Shown in pieces: positions 2,611 through 61,739 of a DNA stretch of 64,000 nucleotides. Position 1 is the first letter of the stretch. The number at the start of each line of letters is the position of its first letter. Below the pieces are notes generated by a model. That model made no database searches, was not told the DNA's origin, and saw only the letters and a list, made by a program, of their open reading frames with translations. The DNA is from Halomonas sp. CH40. Its GTDB lineage: Bacteria > Pseudomonadota > Gammaproteobacteria > Pseudomonadales > Halomonadaceae. The DNA lies in NCBI GenBank assembly GCA_041875495.1, contig CP112982.1, positions 3,100,001-3,164,000 of the forward strand. The letters run 5' to 3'. A program made the position numbers and the translations under genes.

Positions 2611-4079
2611 CAGCGTTCTCCCAATGAGTTATTCCAGGCCCGTAGCACCGGCTTGAGCAGAAACTCCATCACCGTGCGCTTGCCGGTCATGATGTCGACC
2701 TGGGCGGTCATACCGGGGATGACGTCTATTTCGTCGGTGTCGACCTGGCCTTCCTGGGTGCGCACCCGCACCTGGTAAAAGGTGTTGCCTTCTTCGTCGG
2801 TAATGGTGTCGGCGCTGATGTGCTCAAGTTCGGCGTCCAGCCCGCCGTAGACGGCGTAGTCGTAGGCGGTCAGCTTGACGGTGGCCGGCTGGCCGGGGCG
2901 CAAAAAGGCGATGTCCTGGGGAGCAATCCGCGCTTCGACCAGCAGTTGTTCGTCGCTGGGGACGATATCGACCACTTCCTGGCCGGGCTGAACCACCCCG
3001 CCGCGGGTGTTGATATACAGCTGCTGGACGACGCCGTTGACCGGGGAGCGGATTTCTGACAGTTGGACGCGGTCTTCCAGGCCGGTACTGGCTTCTTCAA
3101 GCGATTGGATATCCCCAATGGTGTTGGCCAGGTCATCCCGCCATTCGCTGCGCCGTTCGGCGCCGAGTTCACGCAGTTGGGATTGACTTTCTTCCACCGC
3201 GGCCTGCAAGCGGTCAATCGCGGCATTCGCTTGGTCGCGCTCGCCGCGGTTACGCGAGACTTCCCGCTCCAGGCGCAGCACTTCCACCTCGGAGACGGCG
3301 CCGGATTGCAGCAGCGGCCGGGTGAGCTGGAGTTCCTGGCTGGCCATGTTGAGCTCGCGGGAGGCGGTATCGCGGCGCAGCCGGGCTTCCAGCAGCTCGG
3401 CCTCACGCTGGCGGATGCGATCACGCAGCACGGTTTCCTGTTCGCGCAGTTCTTCCCGGTGGCTGTCGTAGGCTTCGCGCTCCTGGGCCACCACGGAGGG
3501 GGCGTCGCGAAGCAGGTCTTCATCAGGGGCAAAGGGGGTATCGGTGACCAGGGCGCGCAGCCGTTCGGCGCGGGCGCGCAGGGCCTGCACCTGGGACTGG
3601 TTTTCGCGGAAGTCCGAGACAAAGCGGGTTGGGTCGATTTCCATCAGCACTTGCCCGGTCTCGACCAACTGGCCTTCGCGTACCTTGATGGCCTGCACCA
3701 CGCCGCCGTCAAAGGATTGCACCTGTTGCAGCTGCTGGGCGGGGATCACCCGGCCCTGGCCGCGGGTGACTTCGTCGATCTCGGCAAAGTACGACCAGGT
3801 GATCAGGGCGACCACCGCGAGCACTACCGTGTACAGAAACAGCCGGGCGCGCAGCGGGTTCTGCTGCATCCGCGCCCAGTCGGCGTCGCTGGCCCAGTCG
3901 CGGTTGAGGTGAGCCGAGGTCACCCGCTTGGAGAACAGCCGGTCCATAAAGGGGCGGAAAACCTTGCCGCCTTTGGCAGTAAAGCGGCCGAGGTTATCAA
4001 AGCTCTTTTCTTCGGCGGTTGGCTGCTTCCGAGTCGCTTGTGTCTCGTTTGACGTAGAGGGTAACGTTTGCTTGGCCAT
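2610..4079 (-). CDS. HlyD-family type I secretion adaptor (LapC-like)
   Basis: A 489-residue periplasmic adaptor of a type I secretion system. A cytoplasmic N-terminus of about 85 residues precedes one membrane segment (LFLYTVVLAVVALITW), then a lipoyl half-motif (GRVIPAQQLQQVQSFDGGVV), a long Arg/Glu-rich coiled coil (about 165-330), the second lipoyl half (IRSPVNGVVQQLYI) and a beta-barrel domain. It joins the ABC exporter in the inner membrane to the TolC-like channel. Its ATG shares one base with the exporter stop (TAATG), showing tight translational coupling. Length and layout fit LapC/LssD adaptors paired with giant adhesins. Confidence 0.93.
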   Translation of the reverse strand: MAKQTLPSTSNETQATRKQPTAEEKSFDNLGRFTAKGGKVFRPFMDRLFSKRVTSAHLNRDWASDADWARMQQNPLRARLFLYTVVLAVVALITWSYFAEIDEVTRGQGRVIPAQQLQQVQSFDGGVVQAIKVREGQLVETGQVLMEIDPTRFVSDFRENQSQVQALRARAERLRALVTDTPFAPDEDLLRDAPSVVAQEREAYDSHREELREQETVLRDRIRQREAELLEARLRRDTASRELNMASQELQLTRPLLQSGAVSEVEVLRLEREVSRNRGERDQANAAIDRLQAAVEESQSQLRELGAERRSEWRDDLANTIGDIQSLEEASTGLEDRVQLSEIRSPVNGVVQQLYINTRGGVVQPGQEVVDIVPSDEQLLVEARIAPQDIAFLRPGQPATVKLTAYDYAVYGGLDAELEHISADTITDEEGNTFYQVRVRTQEGQVDTDEIDVIPGMTAQVDIMTGKRTVMEFLLKPVLRAWNNSLGER

Positions 4080-6247
4080 TAGCTGGCCCTCCCGATTTGC
4101 CCTTTGCGCAGCGCTTCCACCACCTGTTCGCGGGGGCCGTCGGCCATCACCTTGCCGCCGTCCATAACGATAATCCGGTCGACCAGGGAAAGCAGTGAGG
4201 TGCGGTGAGTCACCACGATCAGGGTTTTGTCGGCGGCGTAGCGGGTCAGCTGTTTCTTGAGCCGGTCTTCGCTGGCGTGATCCATGGCGCTGGAGGGCTC
4301 ATCGAGCAGCAGCACCTGGGGCGCATGCACCACGGCACGGGCGATCGCAATCGCCTGGCGTTGGCCGCCAGAGAGCAGACTGCCGCCTTCCCCCACGGGT
4401 AAATCCACGCCTTGCGGGTGGGAACGCACCAGATCGGCCAGGCCGCTGAAGTTAATGGCGTCGAGCAGTTTGTCGTCATCCACGCCGTCGATACCGCCGC
4501 CGGCCACAATGTTGTCGCGCAGGGTGCCGTAGAACAGGGTAATGTCCTGGGGCACATAGCCGATATGGCGGCGCAGTTGCAGGGGGTCGTACTGGCGAAT
4601 GTCCACGTCGTCGAGCAGCACGGCACCGCTGGTCGGCTGGTAAAACCCCAGCAGCAGCTTGTTGAGGGTGGATTTGCCGGAGCCAATCCGCCCGATCAGG
4701 GCGACTTTTTCGCCCGGTTTAAGGCGGAAGCTGACCTCGCGCAGGGCATCGCGTTCTTCATCCGGGTAGCGCAGTGAGACGCTGTCGAAGCGAAGGTCGC
4801 CCTGCACCACGGGACGGTCAATGTAGCGTTTGCTGTCGGTGCGTTCCTGGGGTTTGTCCATCACGCCGTTGAGCGCTTCCAGGGCGGTGGCCGACTGGTG
4901 GTATTGGGCCATCAGGCCGGCGGCCTGGCTGATCGGCGCCATGGCCCGGGAGGACAGCAGGTAGGCGGCAATCAGGCCGCCCTGGGTCAGGTCGCCTTCA
5001 ATGATCAGGTAGACGCCGGTGATAATGATCACCACCGAGACGGTGTGCTGGGCCCAGAGCGCCACACTGGTCACCGAGGTGCTGACCAGGCGCAGCTGGG
5101 CGGCGGTACGGGACAGAAAGGCCGAGGCCCGTTCCCAGCTGCCCTGCAGGCGGCTTTCGCCGCGCAGGGCCTTAACGGTTTCCAGATTGCCCACCGCTTC
5201 CACCAGAGTGGAATTACGCTGGGCGCTGATCCGCCAGGTGGTCTCGGAGAGTTCGTGCAGCTTGCTTTGGGCGGCCATGGCGTACAGCAGGACAAACACC
5301 GCGCCCACCACAATCGGGATCACCAGGGGCACGCCGATCAGGGCAATGATGGTCATGAACAGCAGCACAAAGGGCAGGTCCACCAGGGCAACGATGGTCG
5401 CCGAGCCGATAAAGGCCCTGACCGCTTCAAACGACTGCAGGGTGGAGGTAAAGGAGCCGGTAGAGGCCGGCTTGGCTTCCATGCGCATGCCCAGTACCCG
5501 CTGCATGATCGACGAGGTCAGCTTGACGTCCGCCCGGCTGGCGGCGAGATCGACAAAGAAGTTGCGCATCAGGCGCAGGGCCAGATCAAAGCACAGCACG
5601 ATCAGAATGCCCGCCGCCAGCACCCAGAGCGTCTCGGTAGCCGCGTTGGGCACCACCCGATCGTAGACGTTCATCACAAACAACGGCATGGCCACGGCAA
5701 ACAGGTTGATCAGCACCGAGCCCAGAATCACATCCCGATAGAGCTTGCGGTTTTCGCGGATCACGCCCCAGAACCAGTGGCGCTCGCGGGACTGTTTGAC
5801 TTCCGGCCCGCGGGCGTCAAAGCGGAACTTGGGGCGCACATAGATGGCCTGGCCGCTGTAGGCCTCTGCCAGGCCGTGCAGGCTGATATCGGTGGTGGCG
5901 TCGCTAAGTTCCGGAAAGCTGACCGTCGCCTGCCCGCTACTCAGGTCCACCGCTTGCAGCAAGCAGGCACGGCCTGATTCCAGCAGCAGGATGACCGGGA
6001 ACAGCGCCGGGTTCAGCTCGCCCAGCGGGCTTTTGATAATCCGCGCGGTCAGGTCAGCGCGGGCAGCGGCACGACCCACAACGCCCGGGGTCAGCTTGCC
6101 CTCTTCCAGCGGCAACCCCGCCCGCAGGGCTTCCCGGGTGGTCTCGTGATGGTGCTGGTGGGCAATACTCAGCAGGCATTCCAGCAGTTCATCCGCCTCC
6201 GCCAAGGTCGCTGGCTCGTCTGGCATTGAGTGGCTTTCGTTAGGCAC
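4079..6247 (-). CDS. Type I secretion ABC transporter (LapB-like)
   Basis: A 722-residue ATP-driven exporter. Residues about 10-150 form a C39-peptidase-like domain with no cysteine protease signature, as in LapB/HlyB-type exporters that do not cleave a leader. Six membrane helices follow (for example VILGSVLINLFAVAMPLFVM), then an ATPase with Walker A GRIGSGKST, signature LLSGGQRQ, Walker B VLLLDEPSS and the H-loop VTHRTS. It sits between the TolC-like gene and the adaptor gene and should export the adhesin at the left edge. ATG 6247 is 107 bp from the outer-membrane gene, in the same direction. Confidence 0.95.
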   Translation of the reverse strand: MPNESHSMPDEPATLAEADELLECLLSIAHQHHHETTREALRAGLPLEEGKLTPGVVGRAAARADLTARIIKSPLGELNPALFPVILLLESGRACLLQAVDLSSGQATVSFPELSDATTDISLHGLAEAYSGQAIYVRPKFRFDARGPEVKQSRERHWFWGVIRENRKLYRDVILGSVLINLFAVAMPLFVMNVYDRVVPNAATETLWVLAAGILIVLCFDLALRLMRNFFVDLAASRADVKLTSSIMQRVLGMRMEAKPASTGSFTSTLQSFEAVRAFIGSATIVALVDLPFVLLFMTIIALIGVPLVIPIVVGAVFVLLYAMAAQSKLHELSETTWRISAQRNSTLVEAVGNLETVKALRGESRLQGSWERASAFLSRTAAQLRLVSTSVTSVALWAQHTVSVVIIITGVYLIIEGDLTQGGLIAAYLLSSRAMAPISQAAGLMAQYHQSATALEALNGVMDKPQERTDSKRYIDRPVVQGDLRFDSVSLRYPDEERDALREVSFRLKPGEKVALIGRIGSGKSTLNKLLLGFYQPTSGAVLLDDVDIRQYDPLQLRRHIGYVPQDITLFYGTLRDNIVAGGGIDGVDDDKLLDAINFSGLADLVRSHPQGVDLPVGEGGSLLSGGQRQAIAIARAVVHAPQVLLLDEPSSAMDHASEDRLKKQLTRYAADKTLIVVTHRTSLLSLVDRIIVMDGGKVMADGPREQVVEALRKGQIGRAS

Positions 6248-56526: not shown

Positions 56527-56615
56527 AATAAAAGGGGTCAGATCCAAATTAAATAAGATCAAAGTGTAAGGATGACGAAAGCCGATCATTTAATTTGGAT
56601 CTGCCCCCTTTTATT
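56527..56615. repeat. Inverted-repeat mini-element, copy A
   Basis: 89 bp. The ends AATAAAAGGGGTCAGATCC and its near-perfect complement extend inward through AAATTAAAT, about 28 bp per arm with one mismatch. The centre carries GATCAAAGTGTAAGGATGAC then GAAAGCCGATC, as in copies B-D. No open frame or transposase. Its right end forms the stop codon of the pentapeptide gene. Confidence 0.88.
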
Positions 56616-57258
56616 CACGAACTCCACAAGACTCAATTGAATTCTGGATAAATGCATTGTTGCTATATTTTTCTCTCCACTTTTTCTCTTGATCCTTGGT
56701 TAACCCCCGCTCTATACCGGATATGTGGCCTGGAAGTTCAGTGTTATTGCAGACAATTGCCAGTGAAATTTGCGCGCTTACAATATTCTTTGCGCCTCTC
56801 AGGTCTACCCCATTAAAATACGCACCACTCAAATTGGCACCTGCCATATCGACGTCATCGAACGTAGTGGCGGTGAATTCTGCATTTGACAAGTTGGCCC
56901 CTATAAGCTCGACGCTTCTTAAACTTGAGTCGTGAAAATCTGCTTCTCTGAAGTCCGCATTAGACAGGTCGACGTTGTAAATTGTCAGACTTGTGAGATC
57001 CATTCCAATTAGGTCTTGCTGTGCATTTATCAAGTCCTCTAGGGCCATACCAGCAGCAGTGGAACTGCGAAAATGCGCAAGTGCTAGGACTTCATGAGCT
57101 TGATATACCACCAGACGCTTGGCTATTTCTCTCTGCTCGTTCCGCTCAGGAATATCAATAGCCCAAGAAATCACAGCTATCAATATCCCAAACTTTGCCA
57201 ATGAATCCAAAGTTCTTATCAGCCAGTGCTTTTCGAGCCATATGGCTAGTTTGCGCAT
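56611..57258 (-). CDS. Pentapeptide-repeat membrane protein
   Basis: 215 residues. One N-terminal membrane helix (FGILIAVISWAIDI) and a run of pentapeptide repeats with central L/F from about 85 to 160: LTIYNVDLSNADFREADFHD, SVELIGANLSNAEF, MAGANLSGAYFNGVDLRGAK. GGAAGGTG precedes the ATG just after attC-like site d. Its last codons GTT CGT GAA and the TAA stop run into mini-element copy A, so the native C-terminus may be altered. Function unknown. Confidence 0.82.
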   Translation of the reverse strand: MRKLAIWLEKHWLIRTLDSLAKFGILIAVISWAIDIPERNEQREIAKRLVVYQAHEVLALAHFRSSTAAGMALEDLINAQQDLIGMDLTSLTIYNVDLSNADFREADFHDSSLRSVELIGANLSNAEFTATTFDDVDMAGANLSGAYFNGVDLRGAKNIVSAQISLAIVCNNTELPGHISGIERGLTKDQEKKWREKYSNNAFIQNSIESCGVRE

Positions 57259-57273
57259 GTTTTCACCTTCCGC

Positions 57274-57361
57274 GCTTAACGCCGCAACTCACCGGCGGCA
57301 AAAAGCAGAGCGAGGAACGAGTGGCGCTTTTTGCCGTCCGAGTGCATTTGCCTTGTTATAC
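57274..57361 (-). repeat. attC-like site d
   Basis: 88 bp. Minus-strand ends GTATAACAAGG and GCGTTAAGC (GTTAAGC fits GTTRRRY exactly). The inner stem CGGCAAAAAGC/GCTTTTTGCCG is perfect over 11 bp and the outer arms GCACTC-GGA and CCGGTGAGTTGC pair with extrahelical bases. It lies 16 bp upstream of the pentapeptide gene and 98 bp past the higA-like stop. The best attC candidate in the window. Confidence 0.82.
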
Positions 57362-57459
57362 CTGTTTATGAGGCTGGACTTTCCGGAATGACGGGTTGAG
57401 GCTCTCGGGAATGCCAGGGCTGGGGGGGTTGCGTAGGTGCGTCGGTCAACGGCTGCTGG

Positions 57460-57753
57460 TTAAGCTGCATCAAAATCCAGAGGGTGAATTTCATCAAGAT
57501 TAACCGTATTTCGGGCTAACCAAAGGTCGTACATATCCTGCATCGCCAACCAGCTCTCAGGTGTGCGCCCGAGCACCTTGGATAGCCGCAAAGACATTTC
57601 CGGGCTGATACCACTATCCCCTTTTAGAAGCCGAGACAGCGTAGAGGGCGAAACCTTCAGGTTAGACGCAAGCTGACGGGAACTGATGTCAAAAGGCTTC
57701 AGGTAAACTTCCCGAATGAATTCGCCAGGATGCGGCGGTTTGTGCATAGTCAT
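57460..57753 (-). CDS. higA: HigA-type antitoxin without a partner toxin
   Basis: 97 residues: MHKPPHPGEFIREVYLKPFD, an XRE-type helix-turn-helix (SSRQLASNLKVSPSTLSRLL) and the HigA C-terminus ESWLAMQDMYDLWLARNT. HigA binds DNA and neutralises HigB. No higB frame lies upstream. Only a short remnant, reading NYQNYH before a stop just upstream of the higA start, resembles a HigB C-terminus. A truncated paralogue lies at 60987. Confidence 0.85.
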   Translation of the reverse strand: MTMHKPPHPGEFIREVYLKPFDISSRQLASNLKVSPSTLSRLLKGDSGISPEMSLRLSKVLGRTPESWLAMQDMYDLWLARNTVNLDEIHPLDFDAA

Positions 57754-57917
57754 TAGTGATAATTCTGATAGTTAAGATGCCTGATGTGCTGCAGGTTAAG
57801 TAGAAACGTTTGCGCTTTTTGTGGCAGGCATTTATGGCGGAATGCTTTGATCTGAGTTTACATTAGCATATTGCGCACCACGCAACAAAATAGCTGAATG
57901 CCGAGGTACAGGGTCAA

Positions 57918-58082
57918 GTGGGTGGCTTGCTGCGCGAAGCCACCCTACGTTTGTGGCCCACCGTCCCGTCATTCCCGCATGCTTTTAGCGGGAATCCATT
58001 GTGACCTACCTTAGGGTTGGGTGGCTTCGGCTGAAAAGGTCAAGGTGGATTCCCGATTACCCCATTCGGGAATGACGGTGAG
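57918..58082 (+). repeat. GC-rich direct repeat, copy 1
   Basis: Starts GTGGGTGGCTTGCTGCGCGA and includes the stem CATTCCCGC-atgctttta-GCGGGAATC, then GGATTCCCGATTACCCCATT and CGGGAATGACGG. Copies 2 and 3 share most of it in the same orientation. No coding content. Confidence 0.8.
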
Positions 58083-58111
58083 GGGGGTGCTTACGGGTAT
58101 GGCGGCAACCC

Positions 58112-58250
58112 CGCTCGCCTGCGGCGAGTGGGTGGCTTGCTGCGCGAAGCCACCCTACGTTTGTGGCCCACCGTCCCGTCATTCCCGCATGCTTTTAGCG
58201 GGAATCCATTGTGGCTTTTGGGTTGGGTGGCTTCGGCAGAAAAGGTCATT
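58112..58250 (+). repeat. GC-rich direct repeat, copy 2
   Basis: The segment from GTGGGTGGCTTGCTGCGCGA through GCGGGAATCCATTGTG is identical to copy 1 over about 86 bp. It ends in GGTTGGGTGGCTTCGGCAGA and lacks the second hairpin. Confidence 0.8.
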
Positions 58251-58303
58251 TAATCCAGAAGCCTTCGCGGTGCATCTCTTTTTGCTGGAGTCGTTATGGC
58301 CTT

Positions 58304-58384
58304 GATGCTGATACGCTCAGTCACGAGGCTTTTCGCACAAGCTGCTGCGTATGGTTGTGCGGCCGAGCGCTAATTTTTGTTCTG
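58304..58384 (-). repeat. Degenerate attC-like palindrome (with 60672-60752)
   Basis: Minus strand: AACAAAAATTAGCGCTCGGC, a GCACAAC...TTGTGC inner stem and GAGCGTATCAG at the end. The region at 60672-60752 is a clear homologue (CCGCACAACC, AAAAGCCTCG, GACTGAGCG). Size and orientation fit decayed attC sites, but the GTTRRRY end is not intact. Confidence 0.4.
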
Positions 58385-58479
58385 ACCATTATGAAGTGCG
58401 ATTCGTATGTTTTTCCTTGTGTGCTTTACGCCTAGCTCACCGGTAGATTGGGCGTTTGGGCAATAAGACTTATCTTGCG

Positions 58480-58779
58480 TCAAAAGCCTAAAAACAGCAT
58501 ATCCAACGCCGCGGAGATGTCATCTTGGTGGTCTGCAAGATTACCAACGCAGGAGCGTAATTCGCCCGCGGGCACAGCAGCCATGAATTGAGTGGCCATT
58601 ACTAGCGCCTGACCCTCGATGCTAAATACAGGATTCAGCCGCTGGGCAGGAGATGGTGCGGAGGATTTGGGTAACAGTGGCACAACAACACGGGTGTTCA
58701 AGCCACTGAGGATATCTGACTGAATATCCAGCAGATAACCAGACCCGCCCTCATTTTCGAAGATGTCGAAACGAGCCAT
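58480..58779 (-). CDS. ccdB: CcdB-family toxin
   Basis: 99 residues: MARFDIFENEGGSGYLLDIQ, NTRVVVPLLPKSSAPSPAQR and LNPVFSIEGQALVMATQFMA match CcdB. The C-terminus ISAALDMLFLGF is where CcdB has its gyrase-poisoning WGI-type residues; here Trp is replaced by Leu/Phe, so strength is uncertain. The start overlaps the ccdA stop by one base. CcdB inhibits DNA gyrase. Confidence 0.9.
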   Translation of the reverse strand: MARFDIFENEGGSGYLLDIQSDILSGLNTRVVVPLLPKSSAPSPAQRLNPVFSIEGQALVMATQFMAAVPAGELRSCVGNLADHQDDISAALDMLFLGF

Positions 58780-59024
58780 CAGAACTGACGGTGCCGTACG
58801 AGGGGCAAGCCGTTAGCGTCAACGTATGCGTTAGAGCTTGCCAGGGCGCTCGCATTTTCTGTCAGCCATTTCTCTTGCTTGTGCAGCTTCACAGCCTCCC
58901 AGATCCCCTTCTCTGCAGAGCGAGAGATATTGACGCCCAGCGCTTTTGCCTCTTTGAGAAGCGCGCTATCTATCGATAGATTCGTCGGCCTACGGGCAGT
59001 TTTGGTAGCTTCAGTAGCATGCAT
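58779..59024 (-). CDS. ccdA: CcdA-family antitoxin
   Basis: 81 residues: a ribbon-helix-helix N-terminus (RRPTNLSIDSALLKEAKALG VNISRS with a break) and the CcdB-binding tail WLTENASALASSNAYVDANG. It binds and represses its own promoter with CcdB. GAGG lies eight bases before the ATG. Its coupled ccdB follows. Confidence 0.9.
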   Translation of the reverse strand: MHATEATKTARRPTNLSIDSALLKEAKALGVNISRSAEKGIWEAVKLHKQEKWLTENASALASSNAYVDANGLPLVRHRQF

Positions 59025-59465
59025 GGTTCAATCCTCGTACGGAACGTTAATCTAACTATATGCGCATAGTTTTTGCGCATCAAGACTGTGTCAAGGCAGC
59101 TTTGTTCCTACGTATCTTGGTGCAAAGGCCTTATCGTTGCCTGCCGCCGAGTTACCCCGCTCGCCTGCGGCAAGTTGCTGGCTTGCTTCGCGAAGCCACC
59201 CTACGTTTGTGGCCCACTACCCCGTCATTCCCGCATGCTTTTAGCGGGAATCCATTTTGACCTTAGGGTTGGGTGGCTTCGGCTGAAAAGGTCAAGGTGG
59301 ATTCCCGATTACCCCATTCGGGAATGACGGTGCTGGGGGAGGTTCGGGAATGGCGGTGCTGTGGGGAGGTTCAGGAATGCAGATGCTGGGGGGAAAGTTC
59401 AGGAATGACGGGGTGGGGCTCGGAAATATCCGCTACGTGTACCATCCCTATTCCAACTCTGCTTG
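59025..59465. other. Non-coding region with repeat copy 3
   Basis: No gene is supported. It holds the ccdAB promoter side and the third GC-rich repeat, followed by short direct repeats of a GGGAATGxCGGTGCTG-like unit (59330-59410). Confidence 0.6.
59155..59332 (+). repeat. GC-rich direct repeat, copy 3
   Basis: Contains CCCCGCTCGCCTGCGGCAAG, GCGAAGCCACCCTACGTTTG, the GCGGGAATCC stem and the second hairpin TTCCCGATTACCCCATTCGG. It combines left parts of copy 2 with right parts of copy 1. Confidence 0.8.
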
Positions 59466-59527
59466 ATATAACGCTTGGCTCTACGGCAAGCCAGCATGGA
59501 GACCGTTTTTTGTCCAGAGCGTTGAAC
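59466..59527 (-). repeat. attC-like site e
   Basis: 62 bp. Minus-strand ends GTTCAAC (a perfect RYYYAAC) and GCGTTATAT. Outer arms AACGCTCTGG and CCAAGCGTT pair with one extrahelical base; inner pairing is looser. It lies 29 bp past the brnA stop. Confidence 0.65.
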
Positions 59528-59555
59528 AGTTCGACATAAGCTGCTTGCTAACTGT

Positions 59556-59765
59556 TCACTGCCACTCGATTTTCAGATCCTTGTGTGATTGAGCGCAATC
59601 ACGCAGGTATAGGTTTATAAGGCTTTGATACGGAAGTCTCTTTTCCTCAGCAAGATCCTTAAAGTAGGCAACGGTGTCTTCATCCAACCGGATCGTAACT
59701 TGCTTCTTGAGCTTCTTGGCATATGGATTCTTGACGGATTCGGAAAAGTCGTAGTGATCACGCAT
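59556..59765 (-). CDS. brnA: BrnA-type antitoxin
   Basis: 69 residues from ATG 59765 (MRDHYDFSESVKNPYAKKLK), with AAGG upstream; ATG 59780 is an alternative. The phrase KQVTIRLDEDTVAYFKDLAE and LPYQSLINLYLRDCA is the ribbon-helix-helix of BrnA. It neutralises the BrnT RNase. It overlaps the brnT remnant by 8 bp. Confidence 0.88.
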   Translation of the reverse strand: MRDHYDFSESVKNPYAKKLKKQVTIRLDEDTVAYFKDLAEEKRLPYQSLINLYLRDCAQSHKDLKIEWQ

Positions 59766-59950
59766 GTCTGTACCCTTCATAAGTATTTTGTTCTCGCTTA
59801 TTGGCCTTACGGGCGGAGATAATTCGAATAATCTCACCGTCCCTAACGCAGTGACACACCACCAGTAAGCGAGAATGAATGCTTGTACCGAGGAGAATGA
59901 ACCGATTCTCCTCTTCAGAATGATCTGGGTCAGCTATAAGACGGGTAACA
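59758..59950 (-). pseudogene. brnT: BrnT-type toxin, 5' end lost
   Basis: The C-terminal 64 residues are BrnT-like: VTRLIADPDHSEEENRFILL, SRLLVVCHCVRDGEIIRIIS and ARKANKREQNTYEG. The N-terminal half, which holds the usual opening WDExKxxxNxxKHG, is missing: the frame runs directly into mini-element copy B. An ATG inside the element (60009) gives a chimeric frame, unlikely to make active toxin. Confidence 0.82.
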
Positions 59951-60033
59951 AAAGGGGTCAGATCCAAATTAAATAGGATCAAAGTGTAATGATGACGAAA
60001 GCCGTTCATTTAATTTGGATCTGACCCCCTTTT
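59950..60033. repeat. Inverted-repeat mini-element, copy B
   Basis: 84 bp with arms AAAAGGGGTCAGATCC and its complement plus AAATTAAAT, same orientation as copies A and C. It separates the 3' side of the higBA cassette from the truncated brnT. A short stub GAACGCATAACTAA between it and the higA stop may be what is left of an attC. Confidence 0.88.
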
Positions 60034-60055
60034 ACTTTTATTAGTTATGCGTTCT

Positions 60056-60343
60056 TCAAGCGGCGACCAGCTTCTTGACCTTGAGCTCTTTACGATGCTG
60101 CTCGGCATGCCAGAGCTCATACTGAGACTGCTGATTCAGCCAACTCTCTGCCGACGTATCGAATGCAATTGACAGACGAACAGCCATTTCGGGGCTAATT
60201 CCAGCCTTGCCGTTCAACACAGCACTCAGCGTTTTTCGACTGACTCCCAACGCTTCGGCAGTCGCAGTAACAGAGAGCCCCATAGGCTCCAGACAAAGCT
60301 CACGCAACACTTCACCAGGATGAGGGGGATTGTGCATTAACAT
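60056..60343 (-). CDS. higA: HigA-type antitoxin
   Basis: About 95 residues from ATG 60343, with GAGG eight bases upstream; ATG 60337 is also possible. [20 protein letters not shown], the [23 protein letters not shown] and [18 protein letters not shown] are HigA hallmarks. It follows higB by 10 bp, the usual toxin-first order. Confidence 0.92.
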
Positions 60344-60353
60344 CGGCAATACC

Positions 60354-60632
60354 TCAGTGATAATCTTCATAGTTGACTATCTCGGCGTCTCCGTCCTCGA
60401 ACCGGAAGGTCACGCGCCAGTTACCACTGACCGTTACCGACCATATTCCAGCGCGACTCCCTGAGAGTTCGTGCAGCCGCAGACCTGGTAAGTCCATATC
60501 TTGTACGTCTGTTGCTGCATTCAGCCTACCGAGAATCAATCGAAGCCTGTTCGCATGAGTGGCCTGTATCCCTGCGGTGCTGCCCGAGTTGAAAAACCTG
60601 GACAAGCCCTTGTGCTTGAAGCTTCGAATCAT
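60354..60632 (-). CDS. higB: HigB-type mRNA interferase toxin
   Basis: 92 residues: [40 protein letters not shown], and the RelE-fold ending [31 protein letters not shown] (split). The complete length and intact motifs suggest a functional ribosome-dependent RNase paired with the HigA that follows. Confidence 0.92.
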
Positions 60633-60671
60633 GATGTAATCGTAACCTGTTACGTATCGGGTTTCAATAAT

Positions 60672-60752
60672 GCATGGCGCTGCGCTCAGTCGCGAGGCTT
60701 TTCCACATTAGCGGCAGCATCTGGTTGTGCGGCTAAACGCTGGCTTTTGTTG
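60672..60752 (-). repeat. Degenerate attC-like palindrome
   Basis: Homologue of 58304-58384: minus strand ACAACAAAAGCCAGCG, GCCGCACAACC, AAAAGCCTCGCGACTGAGCG. It begins at the end of the DUF2442 pseudogene, where an attC would be expected. Confidence 0.4.
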
Positions 60753-60969
60753 TAAACAAACTCTGGATCAAGATCTCTACCCCTGCATCCCACTCTATGG
60801 TATCGAATGAAACGCGAACTCGGTTGAATGCCTTGCACTCCTTGAGGCGCTAAAAAATGCCAAAGTCCGGGTATGGCTGCATATCCAGTACACCTCTCTC
60901 TCCGTTATCAAAGTCAATTGAAAGAAGATAATCCCCGGTTGGAGTGACATTTTTCACAGATGGATACAT
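60686..60969 (-). pseudogene. DUF2442-type protein, broken
   Basis: From ATG 60969 (MYPSVKNVTPTGDYLLSIDF, then DNGERGVLDMQPYPDFGIF) the frame hits TAG, then continues RLKECKAFNRVRVSFDTIEW, and shifts frame near 60768 before DLDPEFVYNKSQ. The pieces match the DUF2442 family. One nonsense change (CAG to TAG would restore Q) and a 2-base insertion disable it. It lies 17 bp after the truncated higA paralogue. Confidence 0.75.
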
Positions 60970-60986
60970 ATTTTCACCCTTGATAC

Positions 60987-61171
60987 TTATGCTGCATCGA
61001 AGTTTAGGGGGTGAATTTCATCAAGATTGACAGTATTACGGGCTAACCAAAGGTCGTACATATCCTGCATCGCCAACCAGCTCTCAGGAGTGCGCCCGAG
61101 CACCTTGGATAGCCGCAGAGACATTTCCGGGCTGACACCACTATCCCCTTTTAGAAGACGAGGCAGCATAG
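60987..61171 (-). pseudogene. HigA-type antitoxin paralogue, 5' end lost
   Basis: The surviving 60 residues (MLPRLLKGDSGVSPEMSLRL ... HPLNFDAA) are almost identical to the C-terminal 60 residues of the HigA at 57460. The N-terminal HTH is cut off exactly at mini-element copy C. Recently duplicated, judging by the close match. Confidence 0.85.
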
Positions 61172-61259
61172 AATAAAAGGGGTCAGATCCAAATTAAATA
61201 GGATCAAAGTGTAAGGATAGCGAAAGCCGATCATTTAATTTGGATCTGACCCCTTTTAT
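61172..61259. repeat. Inverted-repeat mini-element, copy C
   Basis: 88 bp, same orientation as A and B, with arms from AATAAAAGGGGTCAGATCC. Its left end cuts the higA paralogue and its right end supplies the TAA stop of the GNAT remnant. Confidence 0.9.
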
Positions 61260-61650
61260 CCCAACCATTTGTACATGACCAAAGCATCAAGATACCCTTT
61301 GGACGGATGACAAAATGCCTTGGGTAACCGGCCCACGGTAGCGAAGCCAAGCTTGTTCCAAAGCCTTACCGCACCTTCATTGCTAGATGCGACGAAATTG
61401 AACTGCATGGCCTTATACCCAAGTTTTCCAGCGATTTCTTGTGAGTGCTCACACATTGATGTGGCCAAGCCTCGCCCGCTGGCGGCGGATGAAACCATAT
61501 AGCCACAATTGCAGACGTGGTCACCCGGACCCGCCTGATTGGTTTTTATGTAATACGTACCCAGGATCTGCCCTTCTTCTTCAACGACGTAGGTCTTTCT
61601 CGGGCTATCTATCCAAATCTTTTGTGCCTGCTCCTTGCTGATGTCTAAAT
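61256..61650 (-). pseudogene. GNAT acetyltransferase, 5' end lost
   Basis: An open frame of about 130 codons starts inside copy D without a start codon of its own: LDISKEQAQKIWIDSPRKTY, VVEEEGQILGTYYIKTNQ, then CGYMVSSAASGRGLATSMCE (acetyl-CoA loop) and AVRLWNKLGFATVGRLPKAF. An internal ATG at 61498 would give only 80 residues. About 30-40 N-terminal residues are missing. The stop TAA lies in copy C. Confidence 0.82.
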
Positions 61651-61739
61651 AAAAGGGGTCAGATCCAAATTAAATGATCGGCTTTCGTCATCCTTACCCC
61701 TTAGGGATTCTATTTAATTTGGATCTGACCCCTTTTATT
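61648..61739. repeat. Inverted-repeat mini-element, copy D (opposite orientation)
   Basis: 92 bp. Arms as in the other copies, but the centre reads GATCGGCTTTCGTCATCCTT, the complement of the centre in A-C, plus an extra segment ACCCCTTAGGGATTC. It cuts the GNAT 5' end and abuts the gabD 3' side. Confidence 0.9.

What the first reader, a model, noticed from the sequence alone, without database searches (positions are those of the whole stretch)
56527..61739. A non-autonomous inverted-repeat mini-element at four cassette junctions, cutting off gene starts
Copies A (56527), B (59950), C (61172) and D (61648) share about 25-28-bp arms and a common centre. In B, C and D the gene on the downstream side (brnT, higA paralogue, GNAT) has lost its 5' end exactly at the element, while the upstream gene's 3' side is kept and its attC is missing or a stub. 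This pattern suggests insertion into attC sites, or recombination between element copies that deleted attC plus the next gene's start.
Basis: partly seen in the sequence, partly recalled or inferred. Interest (0 to 1): 0.85.

Follow-up and report, generated by a model that had tools for sequence, protein, structure and literature searches.

The report
Transposase-linked hairpin repeats in cassette array
Four copies of a short hairpin-forming mobile repeat, of a family that also flanks an IS200-like transposase gene elsewhere in the same genome, sit in a decaying array of gene cassettes, and next to three of them the neighbouring gene has lost its start.

Summary
A–D are about 88–92 bp with 25–28 bp inverted arms. 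At B, C and D the next gene has lost its start exactly at the element: brnT 108 bp, higA paralogue 108 bp, GNAT mostly 94–96 bp. One element-free relative (L102) has an intact brnT start and an attC-like sequence where B sits; B stands in place of 231 bp there.

They belong to a known kind. The genome holds 11 complete copies plus a half copy. Two flank an IS200-like Y1 transposase gene with the motifs of subclass 2.1 (TIRYT), whose published repeat consensus GGGGWSAS fits GGGGTCAG. A–D are best read as non-autonomous TIRYT-linked repeats.

attC targeting is not supported as a rule: 7 of 11 complete copies lie outside the array, and nearness to gene 3' ends, where attC lies in cassettes, would suffice. 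Whether the element itself removed the missing DNA is unproven. At E2 and at the transposase locus, relative G008 has other DNA in the element's place, but on short anchors. E3 is a clean insertion, and G008's own brnT is cut elsewhere with no element there. Recombination between copies remains open.

The parts
56527..56615 (.). Element A (TIR dimer), at the 3' end of the pentapeptide-repeat gene; no truncated neighbour
59947..60036 (.). Element B, between the attC stub of higBA and 5'-truncated brnT
61172..61259 (.). Element C, between the GNAT gene 3' end (stop codon supplied by the element) and 5'-truncated higA paralogue
61648..61739 (.). Element D, inverted relative to A-C, between the aldehyde dehydrogenase 3' flank and 5'-truncated GNAT gene; one extra CTTTTATT follows it
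60035..60051 (-). Stub of the higBA attC (CGCATAAC on the minus strand, 60044-60051) plus an extra AATAAAAG-type repeat next to B
   Evidence: by eye, compared with L102
59758..59944 (-). brnT, first 36 codons missing (Pfam BrnT_toxin from profile position 33)
60987..61172 (-). higA paralogue, first 108 bp missing; intact paralogue at 57460-57753
61256..61642 (-). GNAT acetyltransferase gene, about 94-96 bp of start and 4-8 coding bp plus stop codon of its end missing
57274..57361 (.). attC-like site of the array (motif and fold match on both strands)
59466..59527 (.). attC-like site after brnA (motif and fold match)

Best explanation
A-D are non-autonomous hairpin repeats (TIR dimers) of a TIRYT family. 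TIRYTs are IS200-like Y1/HUH single-strand DNA transposases flanked by long inverted repeats. The candidate autonomous unit (TIRtron) lies elsewhere in the genome, at about G000:C1:2572129-2573086. Inferred mechanism: the transposase acts in trans on the hairpin of a single strand and joins it, without target duplication, mostly near the 3' end of a gene. In an attC array a gene's 3' end is where attC begins, so the attC association would follow from that. At B, C and D the other end of the element is joined about 100 bp inside the next gene, so attC, leader and gene start are lost. Shown: the arms' fit to the family, the flanked transposase gene, clean insertion at E3, and other DNA of 231 bp at B's place in one relative. 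Inferred: mobilisation by this transposase, and that the insertion event itself removed the DNA.
For: 11 complete copies and 1 half copy in the genome; two of them (E4, E5) flank a PF01797 gene. That protein has NHVH, WE and YIELNP, as tabulated for subclass 2.1, and the arm GGGGTCAG fits the published TIR consensus GGGGWSAS. In 82 genomes of the genus a close relative of the protein is found only in this genome, the other 38 matching genomes giving 21-32% identity, and the arms only here and in G008. 8 of 11 complete copies lie within about 35 bp of a gene's 3' end by open-frame reading (E1, E5, E6, E7, A-D). E3 is absent at the same site in G008 and G053 with at most about 2 bp altered and no duplication. 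In L102 brnTA and higBA are adjacent without B; from the CATAAC half-site to the point where brnT resumes here there are 231 bp. At E2, G008 has about 73 bp of other sequence instead of the element (my count; the right-hand anchor is 27 bp). At the TIRtron, G008 has about 492 bp instead (right-hand anchor 32 bp). At B, D and the TIRtron an extra AATAAA-type repeat lies on the side facing the upstream gene's 3' end, and the plain side faces the lost DNA. At E6 about 95 bp of the neighbouring gene's start (92 bp aligned) is duplicated between a half element and a whole one.
Against: E3 shows a clean insertion, so loss of target DNA is not general. In the closest relative, G008, brnT is cut at another place and fused to another gene's start with no element between, so this array loses gene starts without the element. 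The 492 bp at the TIRtron locus may be an insertion in G008 rather than a loss here: a like gene pair lies beside Y1 transposase genes in two other genomes, and G008 has a further deletion inside the adjoining gene. The extra terminal repeats are a weak guide to polarity: E1 here has one that the same E1 in G008 lacks, E2 and E3 have them facing gene starts, and C has none. G008 has E1 and E7 but no close TIRYT, though its assembly is 89% complete. The C-terminal HTH domain described for subclass 2.1 was not found by Pfam at E up to 10, and the NCBIfam REP-associated transposase model scores 77.2, under its cut-off of 80.
Confidence: 0.56

Rival explanations
1. Plain insertions followed by homologous recombination between neighbouring copies, which deleted the stretch between them and left one hybrid element.
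For: A, B and C are in the same orientation and 89-94% identical, sharing a 3-nt deletion in the centre that D and E2 lack. Four copies lie within 5.2 kb; under uniform placement P is about 1e-9, a window chosen after the fact.
Against: It needs a second insertion inside each of three genes, all near codons 32-37, with no such intragenic copy left. D is inverted relative to A-C. I ran no test for hybrid elements.
Confidence: 0.2
2. The array decays by deletions unrelated to the element, and elements settled in or survived at the resulting junctions.
For: In G008 brnT is cut and fused to another gene start without an element. A second repeat family is scattered through the same array and through that of G008.
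Against: Three of four elements coincide with the gene break to within a few bases, and on both sides of B sequence that matches intact relatives resumes within about 25 bp of the element.
Confidence: 0.17
3. The element recognises attC hairpins as its target, as IS1111-attC elements do (recalled).
For: The extra repeat of B follows directly on the attC half-site CATAAC, and C lies where the GNAT stop and the attC-like sequence lie in L112 and L113 (the motif-and-fold search flagged only the L113 one). 4 of 11 complete copies are in the array.
Against: 7 of 11 complete copies lie outside the array; E1 and E7 are shared with G008. No copy lies near the integrase gene at 2398587. D abuts a gene not shown to be a cassette.
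Confidence: 0.05

Closest known systems
TIRYT / TIRtron repeats (Di Nocera et al. 2013, PMC3733652, passages read; subclass 2.1 of Quentin et al. 2018, PMC6006769, sections 12, 15 part 1 and 31 read)
   Same: Y1 transposase with NHVH, WE and YIELNP; flanked by inverted repeats fitting GGGGWSAS; moderately abundant dispersed TIRs, dimers and clusters among them
   Different: Four copies sit in an attC array, three of them at gene breaks; the passages read do not mention such a setting
REPINs / REP-RAYT systems (PMC3116915, search listing only; PMC8266576, passages)
   Same: Paired inverted hairpins thought to be spread by a Y1 transposase acting in trans
   Different: No GT[AG]G tag; about a dozen copies rather than hundreds (the latter recalled)
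IS1272 inverted-repeat-replacing transposition (PMC5678879, abstract and section list)
   Same: Insertion without target duplication that replaces target DNA, and tandem duplications of an end sequence
   Different: IS1272 is not a Y1 element (recalled); here the lost stretch runs beyond any attC hairpin into the next gene
IS1111-attC elements and group IIC introns of integrons (recalled; PMC11187229 and PMC7923331 seen as search listings with abstract starts)
   Same: Mobile DNA found at attC in cassette arrays
   Different: Those target attC (recalled); this one is mostly elsewhere

Membership tests
TIRYT (TnpAY1 subclass 2.1) | Y1_Tnp (PF01797) core | tested here: met
   55.3 bits, cut-off 23
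TIRYT (TnpAY1 subclass 2.1) | HuH NHVH, W[EQ] and YIELNP motifs, median length 238 aa | tested here: met
   NHVH at 59, WE at 99, YIELNP at 120, 230-233 aa; criteria
TIRYT (TnpAY1 subclass 2.1) | Flanking TIRs fitting GGGG[AT][CG]A[CG] | tested here: met
   E4 carries GGGGTCAG on both arms; E5 carries AGGGTCAG on both arms, one base off
TIRYT (TnpAY1 subclass 2.1) | C-terminal helix-turn-helix domain | tested here: inconclusive
   No Pfam HTH at E up to 10
REP / RAYT (GT[AG]G-tagged) | GT[AG]G tetranucleotide at the hairpin foot | tested here: not met
   Arms begin (A)ATAAAAGGGGTCAG; no such tag by eye. NCBIfam REP-associated model 77.2 bits, cut-off 80
attC-targeting element | Most copies inserted at attC | tested here: not met
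   7 of 11 complete copies outside the array
MITE of a DDE insertion sequence | Target-site duplication | tested here: not met
   None at E3; the other sites are not clean enough to judge
Active mobile element | Mobility in trans by the TIRYT | not testable with these tools
   Needs an assay

The most novel reading that the evidence does not exclude
TIRYT hairpins move by strand replacement rather than plain insertion: one end is joined at a gene's 3' side and the other some 70-500 nt further along the same strand, so the element takes the place of that stretch. In cassette arrays this would swap an attC hairpin and the next gene's start for a transposase hairpin, fusing and freezing cassettes.
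Probability: 0.16. Interest if true: 0.6.

Novelty: new member of a known kind. Interest (0 to 1): 0.35.

Why it matters
TIRYT is named in 2 papers of the library searched, and the passages I read do not establish how such repeats move. This genome offers an apparent autonomous unit, 11 complete copies, two copies shared with a relative (E1, E7), one clean empty site (E3) and sites where target DNA appears to be replaced, so plain versus replacing insertion becomes testable. For integrons it shows how an element without attC specificity may still break up a cassette array, if it favours gene 3' ends.

Tried and rejected
Element C was sought in plasmids and phages, and the arm in viral contigs: no match. 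A genome-contig scan for strict complete elements gave 3 contigs, titled Comamonadaceae (2) and Betaproteobacteria (1). A class scan for GGGGTCAGAT palindromes gave 5 of 369 genomes, this one included. Ten of these loci were read for general anatomy only; that reading has no statistics. A motif-plus-fold attC search also gave hits elsewhere in the window and missed the higA attC of L102, so attC calls at B and in L102 are by eye. An attC covariance model was considered and not built. Paper searches for RAYT with integron, MITE with attC, REPIN and RAYT terms, the arm letters, TIRYT, IS1111 with attC, REP transposase deletions and CALIN decay showed, among the rows listed, no title or abstract start that describes TIRYT repeats in cassette arrays; most of those papers were not opened.

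The near-equal losses (108, 108 and about 95 bp) may be chance: three genes, looked at after the fact.

Full report
What was checked. The window is bases 3100001-3164000 of a single 3.67 Mb contig. The four elements are there as described: arms of 25-28 bp, 96-100% complementary, A, B and C in one orientation, D inverted. The arm core is found 8 times in the window and never in 100 shuffles, and each copy folds as a strong single-strand hairpin.

What family it is. The whole genome holds 23 arm matches, that is 11 complete elements and one half element. A looser pattern added only 5 single matches, against 6 for its reversed control. Besides A-D the copies are E1 (191857), E2 (679240), E3 (1039201), E4 and E5 (2572137 and 2572996), E6 with the half copy E6a (2578453-2578666) and E7 (2628987). 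E4 and E5 flank a gene for a 233-residue Y1 transposase. Its NHVH, WE and YIELNP motifs are those tabulated for subclass 2.1 by Quentin et al. 2018 (sections read). Those authors write that this subclass probably corresponds to the TIRYTs of Di Nocera et al. 2013, and that the majority of the flanking repeats share GGGG[AT][CG]A[CG] (passages of the latter paper). The arm GGGGTCAG fits. The C-terminal HTH domain was not found, and the NCBIfam model for REP-associated transposases falls just under its cut-off. Protein relatives are very common (7998 scored, the limit of that search), but among 82 genomes of the genus the only close relative is this one, and the arms occur only here and in G008. 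No match was found in plasmids, phages or viral contigs.

Where the copies lie. Gene names around E1-E7 are recognised from memory, not scanned. E1 lies 11 bp after thiC, between convergent genes; E7 lies at the 3' ends of two convergent genes; E6 adjoins the end of a nucleotidyltransferase-like gene; E5 lies 12 bp from the end of a glycosyltransferase-like gene and E4 23 bp from the end of the transposase gene; E2 and E3 lie upstream of genes. In the array A and C touch gene ends, B lies 20 bp and D 32 bp after one. So 8 of 11 complete copies lie within about 35 bp of a gene's 3' end, leaving E4 aside; in cassettes that is where attC begins. No background rate for random intergenic sites was computed. 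The array has two attC-like sites flagged by motif and fold, and the one integrase gene over the integron family's cut-off is 757 kb away, so it is best called a cluster of attC sites without integrase. Four of 11 copies in 5.2 kb is far beyond uniform placement (P about 1e-9, for a stretch chosen after the fact), but tolerance of a dispensable region or local spread is enough to explain it.

What happened at the junctions. B: of 11 brnTA loci compared, 10 stop matching at B's edge and the eleventh, G008, stops at 59800. In G200 (L102) brnTA and higBA are neighbours as here, without an element; an attC-like sequence beginning CATAAC follows higA (by eye; one search did not flag it), and brnT has its full start. 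From the CATAAC half-site to the point where brnT resumes here, L102 has 231 bp, of which 108 are brnT coding sequence. C: the higA paralogue lacks 108 bp relative to the intact copy in the same array, and the GNAT gene lacks about 4-8 coding bp and its own stop codon, a stop being supplied by the element. D: the GNAT gene lacks 94-96 bp in four of six homologue comparisons; L114 gave 112 because of an upstream in-frame start and L115 gave no usable value. G008 has the aldehyde dehydrogenase flank without D.

Other sites against relatives. E1 and E7 are shared with G008 and so are old. E3 is absent from G008 and G053 at the same place, with no duplication and at most about 2 bp changed. At E2, G008 has about 73 bp of unrelated sequence, but the right-hand anchor is only 27 bp. 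At the TIRtron, G008 has about 492 bp holding a DUF4258-DUF2283 pair; the right-hand anchor is 32 bp, because G008 also lacks most of the adjoining gene, and a like pair sits beside Y1 transposase genes in two other genomes, so which side is ancestral is open. At E6, G008 has a degenerate arm-like stretch (by eye), and here about 95 bp of the neighbouring gene's start (glmS by memory) is duplicated between the half element and the whole one. B, D and the TIRtron carry an extra AATAAA-type repeat on the side facing a gene end. This polarity is weak: the repeat at E1 is absent from the same E1 in G008, E2 and E3 carry it facing gene starts, and C has none. Similar terminal repeats are seen by eye in elements of unrelated genomes.

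Reading. The identity of the element is well supported. The replacing insertion is an inference: it fits B, C, D and E2 and perhaps the TIRtron, but not E3. Against it, G008 shows brnT cut at another point and fused to another gene start, without any element. Recombination between copies cannot be excluded. attC targeting as a rule is not supported. IS1272 (abstract) offers a precedent for insertion that replaces target DNA and for tandem repeats of an end, in another transposase family.

Verdict. A new member of a known kind, with an instructive setting; the bold reading, that TIRYT hairpins move by replacing a stretch of target, is testable and not excluded.

Noticed in passing
window 57898-58038, 58108-58248, 59154-59294: A second repeat family in the same array (74% and 91% identical to the reference copy, with inverted pieces around GGGAATGACGG); several matches also in the corresponding array of G008 (L118).
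   Followed up: partly
G000:C1:2578446-2578590 (L036): About 95 bp of the neighbouring gene's 5' end (glmS by memory) duplicated between a half element and a complete element.
   Followed up: partly
L118 about 3970-4360: In relative G008 a PIN-like gene start (recognised from memory) is fused to the last 43 bp of brnT without any element.
   Followed up: partly
L197 657-690: G008 lacks most of the glycosyltransferase-like gene that adjoins the TIRtron here, its ends being fused.
   Followed up: no
L242, L247: A DUF4258-DUF2283-like gene pair lies beside Y1 transposase genes in two other genomes (in L247 only the end of the first gene matched), and such a pair stands at the TIRtron locus in G008.
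   Followed up: no
L069, L071, L207, L209, L210, L211, L214: Elements with GGGGTCAGAT arms in unrelated genomes carry tandem repeats of their terminal pieces, by eye.
   Followed up: partly
window 58480-59024: A CcdA-CcdB pair; with BrnTA and HigBA the array is rich in toxin-antitoxin genes.
   Followed up: no
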